From Bacteroidota bacterium (GTDB lineage Bacteria; Bacteroidota; Bacteroidia; M30B66): 44,724 nucleotides of DNA. The notes under the pieces were generated by a model that saw only the letters and a program-made list of their open reading frames with translations, was not told where the DNA came from and made no database searches. A program made the translations under genes and the position numbers. The stretch is taken from NCBI GenBank assembly GCA_027490225.1, contig JAIXYK010000028.1, positions 1-44,724 on the forward strand, given 5' to 3'. This document shows, piece by piece, positions 19,233-25,831 of the stretch; position 1 is the stretch's first letter; every line of letters starts with the position of its first letter.

Positions 19233-21488
19233 ATGAAAAAATTAAATTACACATTTTCAGGATGGTTCCTCCTGGCTGCAGTACTCAACGTGCATGCACA
19301 AAAAACAGCTCCTGTTTCAAAAGATACAGCTACTGTATCAAAACAGTTTGAAGTAATCGCAACCAGGGCAGAAGAAAAATCAGCTATGGTTTTTACAACC
19401 CTGAGTAAAAAAGAAATTCAACAAACTAATTTAGGTCAGGATGTGCCATTTTTGCTCAACACCCAAGCAAATGTGGTGGTAAATTCAGATGCAGGAACGG
19501 GCATTGGTTACACAGGTATTCGGGTGCGAGGAAGCGACCCTTCGCGCATTAATGTAACGGTAAACGGAATTCCAATGAACGATGCGGAATCTAGCAATTT
19601 GTATTGGGTGAATACGCCCGATTTAGCCTCTTCCATACAAAGTGTGCAATTGCAACGTGGTGTTGGCGCAAGTACCAATGGAGCCGGAGCTTTCGGTGCT
19701 ACTTTGAGCTTACAAACTAATGAAATTAACCAAAAGCCTTACGCCGAATGGACAACCGGTGCAGGTTCCTTCAATACGCAACGCAATACCGTAAAATTTG
19801 GAACAGGAACCATTAATAATTTCAGTTTCGATGCGCGCTTGTCGCAAATAACCAGCGATGGATTTATTGACCGTTCTGCAGTAAGGTTACAATCATACTA
19901 TCTATCAGGTTCTTGGTTCAAAGACAAAAACCTAATTCGGGTAAATGCGTTTTCTGGCCGCGAAAAAACTGGTCAAGCGTGGTACGGAGTGCCCACCGAT
20001 TCTTTAGAAAAAAACAGAAGCTATAATGCTGCTGGAAGCTATTTCGAAAATGGAGTCGAAAAATTTTATAACAACGAAACCGATAACTATCAACAAGACC
20101 ATTATCAAGCTTTTTGGGTGCATCAATTTTCAAATAAAATGAAATTCGATGTTGCCCTGCATTATACCAAAGGGCGCGGATATTATGAGCAATACAGGCA
20201 CCAGGAAGATTTATCAAACTATGGTTCAGGGCCAGCGTTTGTAGGTCAGCAAACGTTGGTAGATACACTCGGAAATTCAACTGTAGTGCCTGCCGATACC
20301 ATTTATCAAACCAATTTAGTGCGCCAGTTATGGCTCGATAATGATTTTTATGGAACAGTATTCTCCTTTACTTACGAGCCAAATGCGCGCTTCAAATTGG
20401 TTTCTGGTGGTGGTTTAAATCAATATGTTGGCGACCATTTTGGAGAAATCGTATGGTCTGAAAACTCAAATCTCTTAGCTCCGGGTAGTAGATTTTATGC
20501 CGATAATGCGAAAAAAACAGACTTCAATATATATACAAAAGCAACAGTAGATTTAACCAATAAATTGAATCTTTATGCTGATGTGCAGTACCGAAATGTG
20601 AGTTATGATTTTTTAGGTTTCGATGCCGATACTTTGCCGCTTCAGCAAAAAAGTACGCTTAATTTTTTCAATCCGAAAGCAGGATTTAACTACGCTATCA
20701 GCAAAAAATCACGTGCATTTTTCTCTCTTGCAGTTGGTCACCGCGAACCAACCAGAGACGATTTTACACAATCATCAATAAACAACCGCCCCAAACCAGA
20801 ACAATTGATTGATTATGAAATTGGCTATCGTTTTAATACCTCAAAACTACAATTAGGTGTAACAGGTTATTACATGGATTACACCAATCAATTAGTACTT
20901 TCAGGAGAAATCAATAATGTAGGAAATTATAACCGTGTAAATACTCCAAAAAGTTTTCGCCAAGGTGTTGAAATTGAGTTAGGTACCACTTTGTTTAAGT
21001 GGCTTGATTACGCAGGTAACATTGCATTCAGCAAAAACAAAATTCAAAAATTCACTGAATATGTAGACGATTATGACACTTTTACGCAAGTTCCAATTGT
21101 ATACAACAACACCGATATTTCATTTTCACCAAGTGTGGTAGCGTCTTCAACCATCACATTGAAACCATGTAAAACACTCAACATTCATTTTATTACCAAG
21201 CATGTTGGGCAACAATACCTGGACAATACACAGTCAGAAGACAGAAAAATTGATGCATTCTTGGTAAATGATATTAGAATCAATTGGAACATTGCTTCTA
21301 AAAAGACCACTATTGTTGACTTTGCAATATCTGTAAACAATATTTTCAATGAAAAATACGCTCCAAACGGTTATACGTATGGAGGATTAACTGGAGGTCA
21401 GAGATTGAATTACAACTTCTATTTTCCACAAGCCGGAACAAATTTTCTGGCTATGCTGAGCGTAAAATTTCAATCAACGAACAACTAA
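19233..21488 (+). CDS. TonB-dependent outer-membrane receptor under TPP control
   Basis: This is an outer-membrane 22-strand barrel receptor of 751 residues, probably importing thiamine or a precursor using TonB energy. The substrate is inferred from the TPP riboswitch immediately upstream, an arrangement known for thiamine-related receptors in Bacteroidota. The start at 19233 gives a signal peptide (MKKLNYTFSG..., cleavage after VHAQ). An in-frame ATG at 19158 right after the aptamer would add 25 poorly hydrophobic residues. A TonB-box-like EVIATRAEEKSA precedes the plug domain (about 35-150, with TGIRVRGSDPSRINVTVNG). There is no carboxypeptidase-like N-terminal domain. The final strand ends with Phe-rich AMLSVKF followed by a short polar tail. 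The end overlaps the convergent PNGase-like gene by 15 bases. Confidence 0.9.
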   Translation: MKKLNYTFSGWFLLAAVLNVHAQKTAPVSKDTATVSKQFEVIATRAEEKSAMVFTTLSKKEIQQTNLGQDVPFLLNTQANVVVNSDAGTGIGYTGIRVRGSDPSRINVTVNGIPMNDAESSNLYWVNTPDLASSIQSVQLQRGVGASTNGAGAFGATLSLQTNEINQKPYAEWTTGAGSFNTQRNTVKFGTGTINNFSFDARLSQITSDGFIDRSAVRLQSYYLSGSWFKDKNLIRVNAFSGREKTGQAWYGVPTDSLEKNRSYNAAGSYFENGVEKFYNNETDNYQQDHYQAFWVHQFSNKMKFDVALHYTKGRGYYEQYRHQEDLSNYGSGPAFVGQQTLVDTLGNSTVVPADTIYQTNLVRQLWLDNDFYGTVFSFTYEPNARFKLVSGGGLNQYVGDHFGEIVWSENSNLLAPGSRFYADNAKKTDFNIYTKATVDLTNKLNLYADVQYRNVSYDFLGFDADTLPLQQKSTLNFFNPKAGFNYAISKKSRAFFSLAVGHREPTRDDFTQSSINNRPKPEQLIDYEIGYRFNTSKLQLGVTGYYMDYTNQLVLSGEINNVGNYNRVNTPKSFRQGVEIELGTTLFKWLDYAGNIAFSKNKIQKFTEYVDDYDTFTQVPIVYNNTDISFSPSVVASSTITLKPCKTLNIHFITKHVGQQYLDNTQSEDRKIDAFLVNDIRINWNIASKKTTIVDFAISVNNIFNEKYAPNGYTYGGLTGGQRLNYNFYFPQAGTNFLAMLSVKFQSTNN

Positions 21489-23396
21489 AAAACGTTTTTG
21501 ACTGCTAAAGTTTGGCGTTTTAATGCAAATAAAATAAATACCTTCTGGTATTTGCGAAACATTTAGAGTAACAACATCACTGGATAAAGTACTTAAACCT
21601 TGTTTTAAAATGCTTTGTCCGGTGATGTTAACCACTTCAATTATGCCAGCTTCCTTTATCGGTTCCGAAAACTGAACTGTTACTTGTTCTTGCGCAGGAT
21701 TTGGGAAAATCTCCATCGAAGCTGTTTCTTCCATTTCATTTAAACCTAATACAACTCCTGTAGTAAAATTAAAACGGACTTCTGTTCCAAAATCTCCGCC
21801 CCAGCTTTTGATATTAGTTGCTAAATCAGCTTTTCTAAATCTTATAAAACCGCTGCCATCGCTATTTGCCCACCAGCTAATCCCATCTTTATCAAAATCT
21901 TGTAAAACAAAAGTATAGCAACCACTTGGTAGGTTTACAGTATCAGAATATACAGTTGCAGCATCAAAACCGCTTCTGTTTTCAACTATATTTCCAGCAG
22001 CATCTGCTATATACCAAGCATTTTCTTGTGGGAAGTTATTTGTTTTAAAACTAACCACAAATCTCTCAGGAATTTGCTGTGGAACAACAAAATCAGAAAC
22101 CATAGAGTTGTTCAAAGCATAGCCATCTGTTGTGCCATTAGTTTCAATAATATTAACTTCAAATTTTCCACTTGTTGTAATCCAGTTAACATTAGCTGCT
22201 AAGTCTACTTCTGTCGATTCTAAGAAATTTAAGTTTCCAGTCCAAGTGTATTCAGACATTGGTCCATTTTTTACACCATAACTAAATTTTACAGATGTTA
22301 AGTTATTCGCACCCTTGTTCATCAATTTAATTTTTGGAGAACCACAAATTGGATTCATTCTGTTGAACCTAAAGTCGGAACTCGGTGCCATAATTTCCTC
22401 AATAGATGCATCTAATTGTTTAGCAGGAGAGCCAAATTCAATTAAATATGCTTCAATTACATAGTTTGGAGCCTGCGTTGCATCTGTATTTGTAAAAGCT
22501 TGCATTTCCATTCTAAACTCTTCAGTAGTTCCTGGTGTAGGCGCAAAATGAATCTTATCAGGAAAAACTAAATCACCAGGACACCAGCTCGTTCTGTCGT
22601 AAATCCAAGTTCCCGCTTGCGGGTAAACGGGATTCAGTCCACAGTCATCTCGCCAAACATCTTTCTCGCTCATTACAACATTGTTTCGGTACAAGGTTCT
22701 TTTCTTCGGGCAAAATTCAGCGCAATACTGCACATTATCAGCCGCATGTCCAGTTTGTACTATGTTTAAAGTAGCCGATGATGTTAAAGGGCTGTATGTT
22801 ATATTTTGCGGTGTAAGTTGCTCATTTATAGGGCTTGCAGCATTTCCATAACTAAATTGCCCATTCCATAGTTCATTAATTCCTAAATACGGTCTTGGAG
22901 CTGTGCCCTCAATAAAAACGAATTCAAGGTTTATTTTCCAACCTCTGCCCACATTAGTTTCGTAACCAGTGTGGCGGTATTCAATTTCCACAGAATCTCT
23001 CAAAAGGGCTTCCATGTCTGAAATGTCCAGCTTATAAGAAGCTTTCCAGGTTGCATTATAACTATTACCGTAAGGTGTAATGTATCTGGCAAGTTCCAGA
23101 TTTAACAATTGCCCTTCTACTCCATTTTTTCTTCTAATATAAATATAGTTCAGGTAATCCCATTCCCCGCAGCTTTCCCCATCAGGACATTGAAAAGTAA
23201 GGTCGAACCATGCTTTGTGAAAATTCGAACCCAACGCAGGAAAAACTCCCCAGGCCGGATATGCAGTATATCCATTAGATGGATCGGTTTCTATAAAAAC
23301 ATTGTCGTGGGTTTTTACTTTAACAGTGTCGCCAGGCGCAGCAAAAGTTAGTACAGAATTTAATAAGATTAAAGCGAGTATAAGGTAGGTTTTCAT
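21474..23396 (-). CDS. PNGase F-like T9SS-secreted protein
   Basis: It resembles peptide-N4-(N-acetyl-beta-glucosaminyl)asparagine amidase F, which cleaves N-glycans from proteins. The protein has 640 residues: a signal peptide (1-19), a PNGase F-like pair of domains (about 22-340), an intermediate region, and a T9SS type A sorting domain (about 560-640, IFPNPAQEQVTV ... KRFLVVR). SCGEWDYLNYIYI (D80) matches the setting of the catalytic Asp in PNGase F. GTWIYDRTSWCPGD (262-275) is a family signature. Cys-rich CAEFC (225-229) is a candidate for the other acidic active-site residue (inference). It is probably exported to the surface to release glycans from host or dietary glycoproteins, or to use them as nutrients. 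Confidence 0.82.
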   Translation of the reverse strand: MKTYLILALILLNSVLTFAAPGDTVKVKTHDNVFIETDPSNGYTAYPAWGVFPALGSNFHKAWFDLTFQCPDGESCGEWDYLNYIYIRRKNGVEGQLLNLELARYITPYGNSYNATWKASYKLDISDMEALLRDSVEIEYRHTGYETNVGRGWKINLEFVFIEGTAPRPYLGINELWNGQFSYGNAASPINEQLTPQNITYSPLTSSATLNIVQTGHAADNVQYCAEFCPKKRTLYRNNVVMSEKDVWRDDCGLNPVYPQAGTWIYDRTSWCPGDLVFPDKIHFAPTPGTTEEFRMEMQAFTNTDATQAPNYVIEAYLIEFGSPAKQLDASIEEIMAPSSDFRFNRMNPICGSPKIKLMNKGANNLTSVKFSYGVKNGPMSEYTWTGNLNFLESTEVDLAANVNWITTSGKFEVNIIETNGTTDGYALNNSMVSDFVVPQQIPERFVVSFKTNNFPQENAWYIADAAGNIVENRSGFDAATVYSDTVNLPSGCYTFVLQDFDKDGISWWANSDGSGFIRFRKADLATNIKSWGGDFGTEVRFNFTTGVVLGLNEMEETASMEIFPNPAQEQVTVQFSEPIKEAGIIEVVNITGQSILKQGLSTLSSDVVTLNVSQIPEGIYFICIKTPNFSSQKRFLVVR

Positions 23397-23464
23397 TAAA
23401 AGATAGACTTGTAAATTATCCGCAAATTATTAAAACTTGTTTAATTTTTTTAGGTTTTTTTTGG

Positions 23465-23552
23465 GCGCCAATTCGGGCTGTCGCTACTCGCTTTTTGGCC
23501 TCCGCTGCGCTTTGGCCAAAAGAGCTCAAACAGACCGCTCCATCCCGGGCGC
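23465..23552 (+). repeat. GC-rich palindromic intergenic element, copy 1
   Basis: Outer arms GCGCC-CGGG (23465-23477, interrupted by AATT) and CCCGGGCGC (23544-23552) pair over 9 bases. Inside, TTTTGGCC (23493-23500) and GGCCAAAA (23514-23521) form an 8-bp stem that extends by GCT/AGC across a one-base bulge. It is far richer in GC than its surroundings. A second hairpin follows at 23553-23584 (AGGCA..AGATG / CATCT TGCCT). The 23397-23678 gap between genes holds nothing else that I recognise. It shares its architecture with the element at 25127-25196. Confidence 0.75.
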
Positions 23553-23678
23553 AGGCATTTTAGATGTTTTGTAGCATCTTGCCTTTGTCCTTCGGTATTG
23601 CCATTTATTTCTATTAGAAATGTTTGTTTGTTGGATCCTCCGCTATGCTTGCTTTGTGTTAACAGCTGGTTTCTTCAG

Positions 23679-24326
23679 TTATAGCTTGCTTACTTTTCTA
23701 ATGTATTCCTTAATAATTTTATCGTCGGTTTTCCTGTTTTTAAGAATTTGAAGAATTAAGTCAGAGGGCACTTTTTTCTCTTTCATTCGATACAAAATAT
23801 TAAATTCAAGGTTTCTGTTGTCAACGCTTAAAAGTATTCCAAAGTCTGGACTAAAGTACGTTTCACCAGAAACAAAAGTAGTGTGATTATGCCTTGTTCC
23901 ACAAAACGGGTCATAACAGTTGTAGTTAATGTGTTTGTAAACTAAGTATGATGTATTTCCAATTTTATAGCTAAGCTTTTCCGATACGTAATTGTCTGTG
24001 CTGGATTTTGGAATTAAGTATAATTGTTTCGCATTTTTTATCGTCTTCGTATTTTTTTCTATTTCACTTTTCGACAAAGGCACCGTCCAAGGGTAAATTA
24101 TCTTATTGGCAGAACTAGCTTCAATTAAAAAGTCCTTTGCTCTTCTTTTTATTACATATTTTTTGTAGTAGTTGACCCCAGAACTTAATTCGTGCGAATA
24201 ATTAATAAGAAGCAAACATTCTACATTTGAAAATACGATGGTTTCTTTCGGTTTCAAATGCTCTTTTGAGAAACCGTGAAATTGCCATAATAGACATACA
24301 ATGATATTTAATAACCTCTTTATCAT
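23679..24326 (-). CDS. small secreted protein of unknown function
   Basis: I do not recognise this 215-residue protein. It begins with a probable signal peptide (hydrophobic 5-15, HGFSKE near 17-22). The mature part is basic and rich in Lys, Tyr and Asn. A short conserved-looking centre, YDPFCGTRHNHTTF, contains two cysteines (C137, C142) and two histidines that could bind metal or form a disulfide; this is only a suggestion. It is the last gene before palindromic element copy 1 and follows the lipoprotein gene by 85 bases on the same strand. Confidence 0.6.
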   Translation of the reverse strand: MIKRLLNIIVCLLWQFHGFSKEHLKPKETIVFSNVECLLLINYSHELSSGVNYYKKYVIKRRAKDFLIEASSANKIIYPWTVPLSKSEIEKNTKTIKNAKQLYLIPKSSTDNYVSEKLSYKIGNTSYLVYKHINYNCYDPFCGTRHNHTTFVSGETYFSPDFGILLSVDNRNLEFNILYRMKEKKVPSDLILQILKNRKTDDKIIKEYIRKVSKL

Positions 24327-24411
24327 AAACTTCTGATAACTATTTTCTATCTGCTATTTAAAGTACTATACTTTTTTAATACCTACTTGGCAACAAATAT
24401 TTTCTTCAGCT

Positions 24412-25047
24412 TTAACAGCCTACCATCATGTCAAATACTAACATAAAAACCTTCGGCTTTCCGGCCATGATTGTGCTTAACTTAAGGTAATATCGGTTGG
24501 TATAGGCCGATAATGTTTGGTTTTCTTTCAAACCTGTTTTTCCATTTTCCTTGGCATCTTCCACCAAAGTAGAATAATCATTTTCGTCTTTAAAGCTGGT
24601 TAAACGAAATTTTTTCTCTAACGCATAGGTTAAAGTATACCAATTCGAGCGATACTTTTTTCCCGCTGTATGCTCAAAAGTTTTTATCTCATCGTTCACA
24701 TACAGATGCTGTTCTTCCATTTGTTCGAGGCTTAAATTTTCATCGCTGTTTTTCAGCATGTCAAATTCTAAATCCAAGGGATTAACACCTATTTCTAATT
24801 CAAAAAAAATGCTGTCTTCAGCATTCCCTTTTTTTCGGGATTTTTCTTTCAACTCGCTTGGTATTCCCAGTTCCAGCCCGGCTGGCATCAACACCAAATT
24901 TGTTGGCTTAGGTGCTTCGTCTATGTTTTCAACCATAGCGCTATCGGCTTCCACGGCTTTGTTTTCGGTTGTTGAGCCGCAACTAGCGCCCAATAATAAC
25001 AAACCTGCCAAGAGGAATAAAAACAGCGTTGAGGTGGTTTTTTTCAT
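24412..25047 (-). CDS. putative lipoprotein of unknown function
   Basis: The protein has 211 residues from the ATG at 25047, giving a typical lipoprotein signal: MKKTTSTLFLFLL, a leucine-rich core, and GASC with the acylated Cys at 23. An ATG at 25077 would add ten residues ahead of the Lys-Lys start and is disfavoured. The linker (24-45) is acidic and Ser/Thr/Glu-rich. The rest has no motif I know; it carries an acidic DLEFDMLKNSDENL region and ends in a Met-rich strand (FDMMVGC). It is probably anchored in the periplasmic face of a membrane. Together with the gene at 23679 it is bracketed by the two palindromic elements. Confidence 0.65.
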   Translation of the reverse strand: MKKTTSTLFLFLLAGLLLLGASCGSTTENKAVEADSAMVENIDEAPKPTNLVLMPAGLELGIPSELKEKSRKKGNAEDSIFFELEIGVNPLDLEFDMLKNSDENLSLEQMEEQHLYVNDEIKTFEHTAGKKYRSNWYTLTYALEKKFRLTSFKDENDYSTLVEDAKENGKTGLKENQTLSAYTNRYYLKLSTIMAGKPKVFMLVFDMMVGC

Positions 25048-25126
25048 GGAGGGAAAGGTAAGAAGAATGGAATGCAAATGAATTCATATGTATAGTAAAA
25101 AGATTCACCATTCTCCCGCCCGCCCT

Positions 25127-25196
25127 GCCCCGGATAGGAGCGTGTAGCGTTGGTGTAGCTTGCGGAACCGACCTACAGCGGATAGCCGGAATTGGC
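25127..25196 (+). repeat. GC-rich palindromic intergenic element, copy 2
   Basis: Outer arms GCC-CCGG (25127-25133) and CCGG-AATT-GGC (25186-25196) pair with an AATT bulge, the same bulge as in copy 1 but on the opposite arm, so this copy is inverted. Inside, TGTAG-C-GTTGG (25143-25153) pairs with CCGACCTACA (25168-25177): ten pairs with one bulged C and a 14-base loop. On the minus strand it begins GGGCCAATTCCGG, comparable to GGGCGCCAATTCGGG of copy 1. It sits between the terminator at 25203-25239 and the lipoprotein gene. Confidence 0.75.
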
Positions 25197-25202
25197 CCAA
25201 AC

Positions 25203-25239
25203 AAAAAAGCAACATTTCGTTGTGCTGAAATGTTGCTTT
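25203..25239 (-). terminator. intrinsic terminator after the gene at 25259
   Basis: On the minus strand a perfect 13-bp stem (arms 25227-25239 and 25206-25218) with an 8-base loop is followed by a run of T. It lies 20 bases past the stop of the gene at 25259-25831. Confidence 0.85.
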
Positions 25240-25258: not shown

Positions 25259-25831
25259 TTATTCCATGCCATTATAGGCAATTACAATCTTGTCTATGTC
25301 TTTGGCTGTCCATTTATTCTCATTAATCAGCTCAATAATTTTGGTGTCTTGGCTAAACAACTCTTTTACAGTTTTTTTGAAACCTTTTTCTAGAATCTCA
25401 ACAAAGCCTTCCTCGTTTTTTCTTTTTATGAAAAGTCCTGTTTCATAAACAAATTTTTGAGGGCTGCTTTCTGGTAGTTTGTACCAATATTTATAAAGAC
25501 TCATATCGCCTTTTATAATCACTTCTACCATCAAAATAATGGGATCGTCTGGAATTGGCGTGATAAATTCGAAATTCTTTGAATTACAATAAAACTTTGT
25601 AAGCTTTTCTCCACCCATTCTTTTCTTAAGATTGGTAGCGTCTAAAAAGAAAATCTTCTCATACACTTCTCCAGTCTTAGCGTTTTCGTAGCAGATTTTA
25701 CCTTTTAAAGTATCTCCTTTTTTGGTAAGGGCCCAACCGTCGTAAAAGTCCATTCCTTTATTATTGGCTGCCTGAGAAAATCCATTCAGTGAAAAGAATA
25801 ATAAAGCAAAAAGGAGTAAAGCGTTCTTCAT
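25259..25831 (-). CDS. small secreted protein of unknown function
   Basis: The protein has 190 residues with a clear signal peptide (MKNALLLFALLFFSLNG, cleavage after FSQ). The mature start DGWALTKKGDTLKGKI follows the common Bacteroidota pattern of a secreted protein with a short beta repeat of the form G-D-T-L/I-K-G-K-I. The rest contains alternating hydrophobic strands and a Lys/Glu-rich C-terminal half. There is no known catalytic motif. It is a single transcription unit, with a TAnnTTTG box upstream and its own terminator downstream. Confidence 0.65.
   Translation of the reverse strand: MKNALLLFALLFFSLNGFSQAANNKGMDFYDGWALTKKGDTLKGKICYENAKTGEVYEKIFFLDATNLKKRMGGEKLTKFYCNSKNFEFITPIPDDPIILMVEVIIKGDMSLYKYWYKLPESSPQKFVYETGLFIKRKNEEGFVEILEKGFKKTVKELFSQDTKIIELINENKWTAKDIDKIVIAYNGME

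What the first reader, a model, noticed from the sequence alone, without database searches (positions are those of the whole stretch)
23465..25196. Two inverted copies of a GC-rich palindromic element bracket a two-gene cassette
The elements at 23465-23552 and 25127-25196 differ in sequence but share a layout: an outer stem interrupted by an unpaired AATT on one arm (GCGCC-AATT-CGGG, GCC-AATT-CCGG), an inner 8-10 bp hairpin, and much higher GC content than their surroundings. The AATT arms point outward, so the pair forms imperfect inverted repeats around 1.7 kb holding a lipoprotein gene and a small secreted-protein gene, neither of which I recognise. This is the geometry of REP/MITE-like elements mobilising or insulating a cassette, or of a structured RNA family. 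No transposase is present in the window.
Basis: partly seen in the sequence, partly recalled or inferred. Interest (0 to 1): 0.65.

Follow-up and report, generated by a model that had tools for sequence, protein, structure and literature searches.

The report
Paired dispersed palindromes bracketing two genes
The two GC-rich palindromes are copies of a family of about 126 structured DNA repeats in this genome, related to what Rfam calls "Flavo-1 RNA"; close neighbours in the family nearly always face each other in the same inverted way, as they do around these two unusual genes, but it is not shown that the pair moves the genes.

Summary
Both elements are real: 23455-23562 (+) and 25116-25206 (-). 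A covariance model trained on 17 other copies, without these two, finds both (E about 1e-12 and 1e-10) and nothing else in the window. They belong to a dispersed, mostly intergenic family: 126 hits in this 3.77-Mb genome, 76 in a relative, patchy across the phylum. It is related to Rfam Flavo-1 (RF01705), although these two score below its cut-off. The stems covary massively; the two middle helices contain no G-U pairs in 65 sequences, which points to pairing in DNA, not RNA. Some close pairs hold ORF6N or toxin-like genes, or nothing. Between two species, orthologous elements are far more conserved than their flanks (88% v 50%), so copies are retained under structural constraint. The two window genes are absent here in nine relatives, but no clean empty site was found. 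Best reading: REP/REPIN-like palindromes; mobiliser unknown; an HUH (Y1) transposase is suspected, not shown.

The parts
23455..23562 (+). Element 1 (subtype C): T-run, GGGCGCC-AATT-CGGGCTGTCGCTACTCGC, inner hairpin, GAGCTCAAACAGACCGCTCCATCCCGGGCGC, AGGCATT
   Evidence: CM R1, trained without it: 53 bits, E=1.9e-12; R2 56 bits; sub-threshold full-length Flavo-1 match on the opposite strand, 19.5 bits; same subtype in G006/G007 (L159/L200)
25116..25206 (-). Element 2 (subtype A), inverted relative to element 1, T-run/AATT end outward
   Evidence: CM R1: 46 bits, E=1.8e-10; R2 52.5 bits; Flavo-1 27.8 bits, below gathering 42
23679..24326 (-). Cargo gene: 215-aa secreted-type protein, no family; 80% identical homologue in G008 in another context, 35% in G011, fragment in G007
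   Evidence: no confident Pfam family; relatives; identity confined to the ORF
24412..25047 (-). Cargo gene: 211-aa lipoprotein-like protein (weak PG1828-family lipoprotein N-terminus, below cut-off); no relative found
   Evidence: no Pfam family; NCBIfam NF050142 E=0.001, below cut-off; no relative in 84,980 genomes at close range
25206..25239 (-). Intrinsic-terminator-like hairpin and T-run behind the 190-aa gene; element 2 starts right after it
   Evidence: perfect 13-nt inverted repeat; a terminator-like hairpin occupies this place in the relatives
25259..25831 (-). 190-aa gene bounding the interval on one side (conserved backbone)
   Evidence: orthologues in nine family members
21474..23396 (-). 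PNGase F-like protein with type IX secretion tail, bounding the interval on the other side
   Evidence: Pfam N-glycanase_C 7e-15, Por_Secre_tail 1e-16; orthologue next to the TonB receptor in G003

Best explanation
The two elements are copies of a large family of dispersed, mostly intergenic DNA palindromes of about 70-130 bp in Bacteroidota, to which Rfam's Flavo-1 'RNA' belongs. They work like REP/REPIN- or ERIC-type repeats. SHOWN: many copies; common ends (T-run + GGGCG...GCGC + GGCATT); a four-helix structure kept by compensatory change; occurrence in every orientation relative to genes; a strong rule that close neighbours are inverted with T-run ends outward; retention at orthologous sites between species with far higher conservation than the flanks. 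INFERRED: the structure matters as folded single-stranded DNA and not as RNA; copies spread as solo elements or as outward-facing inverted pairs that can enclose nothing, or short gene modules such as toxin-antitoxin genes, ORF6N genes or orphan genes; a single-strand-DNA enzyme of the HUH/Y1 type acting in trans is the likeliest mobiliser. At this locus the pair most probably marks a lineage-specific gene insertion holding the lipoprotein and 215-aa genes, but that step is not demonstrated.
For: Independent detection of both elements; 126 copies, 76 in G006, patchy presence in 46 of 296 genomes of the phylum. Covariation: 245 two-sided changes against 69 +/- 8 in shuffles and 40-66 with slid partners; 92% of cells paired against 38-46%; helices 2 and 3 have 146 two-sided changes and no G-U cell in 65 sequences. 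Inverted pairing 15 of 17 under 5 kb, 0 tandem, random beyond; replicated in G006. No gene-orientation preference: ++11 +-15 --12 -+13. Orthologous pairs: core 88% identical, 40-nt flanks 50%, with paired changes. Near-identical copies in unrelated contexts with sharp ends. Third-position GC skew negative on the element strand in 48 of 58 own loci, p=1e-9, as expected of lagging-strand ssDNA insertion. Y1 genes have an element within 500 bp in about five independent cases against 0.25-0.75 expected. Small-pair cargo: ORF6N, ParE-like, PIN.
Against: G006 is rated 100% complete, holds at least 76 copies and has no Y1 gene at E<=0.001; many genomes with several Y1 genes have no copies. The own Y1 gene is flanked by other short REP-like repeats that look like its own cognate. 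The replication-strand bias is absent in complete genome G252 (9 of 22). The G008 homologue of the cargo gene has no elements. Pairs over 2 kb mostly enclose housekeeping-type genes. 14 of about 17 tested sites are occupied in both G006 and G007, so movement is slow. Copy counts are lower bounds, because only 150 candidates per genome were scored.
Confidence: 0.6

Rival explanations
1. A structured RNA family (Flavo-1 sRNA or cis-regulatory RNA): the elements are transcribed and act as RNA.
For: Rfam lists Flavo-1 as an sRNA family; both elements align to it end to end, and eight own-genome copies reach its cut-off. Strong covariation and cross-species conservation above flanks. Some 5' transcribed regions coincide with Flavo-1 hits in Flavobacterium psychrophilum (PMC9723704).
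Against: No preference for gene orientation; 13 of 51 sites lie between divergent genes. No G-U pairs in helices 2 and 3. The transcriptome study itself found Flavo-1 hits indistinctly sense or antisense to transcribed regions, and many outside them. More than 100 copies per genome.
Confidence: 0.15
2. Ordinary solo repeats: the family is real, but the E1/E2 pair is a chance neighbourhood and the two genes are unrelated to it.
For: With 126 copies about 7 adjacent pairs within 1.7 kb are expected by chance; for spacings of 1-2.2 kb about 1.2 chance '+-' pairs are expected against 4 seen (my estimate). The cargo homologue in G008 lacks elements. The two partners belong to different subtypes.
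Against: All nine pairs within 1.7 kb are outward-inverted, none tandem; genes absent in nine relatives.
Confidence: 0.3
3. REP/RAYT system in the strict sense: elements are REPs mobilised by a cognate Y1 (TnpA-REP) transposase encoded in the genome, e.g. the Bacteroidetes subclass 2.6 said to be flanked by atypical secondary structures.
For: The only Y1 gene of the genome has a copy 200 bp away; the only R2 copy of G022 lies 173 bp from its Y1 gene; further cases in G003/G008, G036, G050. Literature: subclass 2.6 genes flanked by atypical secondary structures (PMC6006769).
Against: G006 has none and 76 copies; no GTAG/CGTC foot; own Y1 is IS200-like, with different short repeats around it.
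Confidence: 0.35

Closest known systems
Rfam RF01705 Flavo-1 (Weinberg et al. 2010, PMC2864571)
   Same: Full-length structural match 1-76 for both elements; all eight own-genome copies that reach the Rfam cut-off fall in the same family found with model R2
   Different: The two window elements score 27.8 and 19.5 bits, below 42; the evidence here points to a dispersed DNA repeat in outward pairs, not an RNA
REP / BIME / REPIN elements with RAYT (TnpA-REP) transposases
   Same: Many-copy intergenic palindromes, inverted pairs, some copies near Y1 genes, possible lagging-strand bias
   Different: Larger (70-130 bp, four helices), no GTAG/CGTC foot, not excluded from divergent promoter regions, pairs up to kb apart with genes inside, present in a genome without Y1
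ERIC / BOX / NEMIS-type intergenic repeats (from memory)
   Same: About 100-bp imperfect intergenic palindromes, no known dedicated transposase, both orientations, conserved between species
   Different: Other phylum and sequence; outward pairing rule with cargo not known to me for these
Integron attC sites (from memory)
   Same: Works alike in outline: folded imperfect palindrome with bulged bases and a variable terminal hairpin, next to toxin-antitoxin and orphan genes
   Different: Inverted pairs instead of same-orientation arrays; the GTTRRRY core is not visible; no integrase searched for

Membership tests
Rfam Flavo-1 (RF01705) | Score at or above gathering threshold (42 bits) | tested here: not met
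   27.8 and 19.5 bits; no gathering-level hit in the window
Rfam Flavo-1 (RF01705) | End-to-end match to the 76-position structure | tested here: met
   model positions 1-76 for both elements
Rfam Flavo-1 (RF01705) | Acts as a transcribed non-coding RNA | not testable with these tools
   No RNA data; orientation and G-U evidence argue against
REP / RAYT system | GTAG or CGTC tetranucleotide at the hairpin foot | tested here: not met
   Ends are T-run + GGGCG and GCGC + GGCATT; REP definition from PMC3733652
REP / RAYT system | Cognate Y1 transposase gene flanked by the repeat | tested here: inconclusive
   About 5 associations against 0.25-0.75 expected, but G006 has 76 copies and no Y1
REPIN (inverted REP doublets) | Copies occur as inverted pairs | tested here: met
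   15 of 17 adjacent pairs under 5 kb outward-inverted, 0 tandem; 9 of 13 in G006
MITE | Many dispersed near-identical copies with sharp ends in unrelated flanks | tested here: met
MITE | Target-site duplication and a related autonomous transposon | tested here: inconclusive
   No duplication evident by eye; no transposase recognised in the paired intervals by ORF reading; not searched systematically
MITE | Empty site in a relative | tested here: inconclusive
   Sites lacking an element exist (L168/L191, L202/L211), but flanks are rearranged on one side
Integron attC | GTTRRRY/RYYYAAC core boxes and an integron integrase | not tested
   Core boxes not visible by eye; no integrase search made

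The most novel reading that the evidence does not exclude
The Flavo-1-like palindromes are the two ends of a single-stranded-DNA cassette system of Bacteroidota: outward-facing inverted pairs define units, from empty (about 190 bp) to a few kb, that carry toxin-antitoxin, ORF6N and orphan genes and are spread in trans, so that a listed 'RNA family' is really a gene-mobilising DNA repeat.
Probability: 0.2. Interest if true: 0.85.

Novelty: new variant of a known kind. Interest (0 to 1): 0.6.

Why it matters
An Rfam family treated as an sRNA, and counted among the most abundant bacterial sRNAs (PMC9029176), would be reclassified as a dispersed, paired DNA palindrome, which changes how it should be annotated and tested. 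The strict pairing rule gives a concrete, countable signature for possible cassette boundaries in Bacteroidota and points to modules (toxin-antitoxin, ORF6N, orphan lipoproteins) that may be mobile. It also makes testable whether a trans-acting HUH enzyme drives it.

Tried and rejected
(1) Folding energy of single elements: uninformative, z near 0. (2) Own-genome BLAST with the elements: element 2 looks unique and element 1 has about 25 partial matches, which would have misled; structure-aware search was needed. (4) Relatives of the lipoprotein in 84,980 genomes: none at close range. (5) Replication-strand bias in complete genome G252: not seen (9 of 22), although clear in the own genome. (6) RNA-strand test by comparing folding energies of the two strands: the Rfam strand folds about 2.6 kcal/mol better, but purine-rich internal loops could explain this, so not used. 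(7) Whether partners of a pair are preferentially of different subtype: about 11 of 16 by eye, not clearly above chance. (8) Local skew against subtype order within pairs: no pattern. (9) Literature on dispersed palindromes in Flavobacterium/Bacteroidetes: nothing on point found in the held library.

Full report
WHAT IS THERE. Two GC-rich imperfect palindromes lie at window 23455-23562 (+) and 25116-25206 (-) in an AT-rich (64%) Bacteroidota contig. All genes around them run on the minus strand: a 190-aa gene, element 2, a lipoprotein-like gene, a 215-aa gene, element 1, and a PNGase F-like type IX-secreted protein. Single-sequence folding energies are no better than shuffles, so the case rests on comparison. 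Rfam at its own thresholds finds nothing; at relaxed thresholds both elements match Flavo-1 (RF01705) over its whole length, with 27.8 and 19.5 bits against a cut-off of 42.

FAMILY. Flavo-1 itself has 30 own-genome matches better than E=0.01, eight at or over the cut-off. Aligning copies showed common ends: a T-run followed by GGGCG(C/G)C, an A/T-rich 4-5 nt bulge (AATT in the window), short covarying helices around CTATC/CTATC-like internal loops, a variable inner hairpin, GGCGC and GGCATT. A covariance model from 17 copies, excluding the two window elements, found both window elements at E=1.9e-12 and 1.8e-10 and no other in the window. A second model from 68 hits gives 126 copies in the genome, a lower bound because only 150 candidates were scored.

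STRUCTURE. On 65 distinct copies, 92% of cells are paired, against 38-46% when the partner is slid; 245 cells carry two-sided changes, against 69 +/- 8 in shuffles. Helices 2 and 3 have 146 two-sided changes and not one G-U pair. An RNA under selection normally shows many G-U intermediates, so I read this as Watson-Crick pairing in DNA (inference).

GENE CONTEXT. Of 58 own copies, flanking-gene orientations are ++11, +-15, --12, -+13, so there is no 5'- or 3'-UTR preference. The T-run end lies within 11 nt of a stop codon in 15 of 31 cases where a gene reads toward it, against 1 of 27 at the other end (p=1e-4). Several copies follow terminator T-runs directly, element 2 among them. In F. psychrophilum, Flavo-1 hits were reported as indistinctly sense or antisense to transcripts (PMC9723704), which agrees.

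THE PAIRING RULE. Adjacent copies within 5 kb are outward-inverted ('+-') in 15 of 17 cases, never tandem (binomial p=7e-8 for 25%); beyond 5 kb orientation is random. In G006, a different genus, 9 of 13 are '+-' (p=0.001), also random beyond. The window pair, 1661 bp apart, obeys the rule. Pairs run from back-to-back without cargo (C46, C49) to a few kb. Short pairs hold an ORF6N protein (own C8, G006 C56), a ParE-like toxin (just below Pfam's cut-off) with a small partner (own C18), or small orphan proteins; a 3.3-kb pair in G006 holds a PIN-domain gene; longer pairs mostly hold housekeeping-type genes.

CONSERVATION. G006 and G007 are about 83% identical. Flank-based queries found orthologous sites; 14 element pairs have cores 88% identical against 50% for the 40 nt outside, close to the roughly 85% of neighbouring coding DNA. 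Thirteen of these pairs rest on flank synteny; the fourteenth (L159/L200) was matched by subtype and its orthology is not shown. Changes are often paired (CAGGC..CCTGG to CGGGC..CCCGG; TACACGGTA to TGCACGGCA; a rewritten inner hairpin in L157/L198). Two or three sites are occupied in one species only, with rearranged flanks. Copies are therefore long-lived and constrained. Gene conversion between copies could contribute: G007 copies of one subtype share a variant that most G006 copies lack.

THIS LOCUS. The backbone TonB - PNGase F - ... - 190-aa - TPM - LemA is conserved where contigs allow it to be seen; none of nine relatives has the lipoprotein or the 215-aa gene there, and other genes fill the interval. 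A terminator-like hairpin follows the 190-aa gene in the relatives; an element follows it only here and, weakly, in G006 and G007. The 215-aa protein is 80% identical to one in G008, while the 190-aa and LemA orthologues are 47% and 64% identical, which suggests gene transfer. The similarity ends with the ORF, and no element lies nearby in G008. The lipoprotein has no close relative in 84,980 genomes. So the cassette reading is plausible, not shown.

WHO MOVES THEM. The own genome has one Y1 (IS200-like) gene, with a copy 200 bp away; about five independent such associations exist where 0.25-0.75 are expected, and G022's only copy is one of them. But that own Y1 gene has its own short repeats, and G006 has no Y1 gene. 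Third-position GC skew puts the element strand on the C-rich strand in 48 of 58 own loci, as expected for insertion into lagging-strand ssDNA; in G252 no such bias appears. I hold HUH-type mobilisation as the leading but unproven idea.

VERDICT. The family is a large, paired, structure-conserved relative in behaviour of REP/REPIN elements; Flavo-1 should be tested as DNA. A short route to a decision is strain-level empty sites and strand-specific RNA data.

Noticed in passing
L110 2784-3446 (own contig C62): The genome's only IS200-like Y1 transposase gene is flanked by short inverted repeats CCCCGAAGGGGTGACATTAT / ATAATGTCACCCCTCCGGGG; similar CCCC..GGGG-TGACA or GTCACATAT repeats sit by Y1 genes in G022 (L124) and G050 (L241) and in a G007 locus (L193). 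Possibly the cognate REPs.
   Followed up: partly
own-genome loci L010-L013, L015, L016: Subtype C copies (the element 1 kind) often carry a second nested palindrome of the CCACAGGTTTAAAACCTGTGG type in their inner loop, as if another repeat had inserted there.
   Followed up: no
58 own-genome loci: Element strand lies on the C-rich strand (third codon positions) in 48 of 58 loci: a replication-strand bias in this genome that is not seen in G252.
   Followed up: partly
window 23679-24326: The 215-aa protein is 80% identical to one in another genus (G008), far above neighbouring orthologues: a likely horizontally acquired secreted protein of unknown function, with a remnant in G007.
   Followed up: partly
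G006 loci L163-L166, L172: Some G006 copies share 30-40 bp of further sequence beyond the right end (e.g. ATTTCGGTAGGCTGAGGGTTT), so the repeat unit may be longer in some subtypes.
   Followed up: no
window 21474-23396: Type IX-secreted protein with a PNGase F C-terminal domain next to a TonB-dependent receptor gene, conserved in G003.
   Followed up: no
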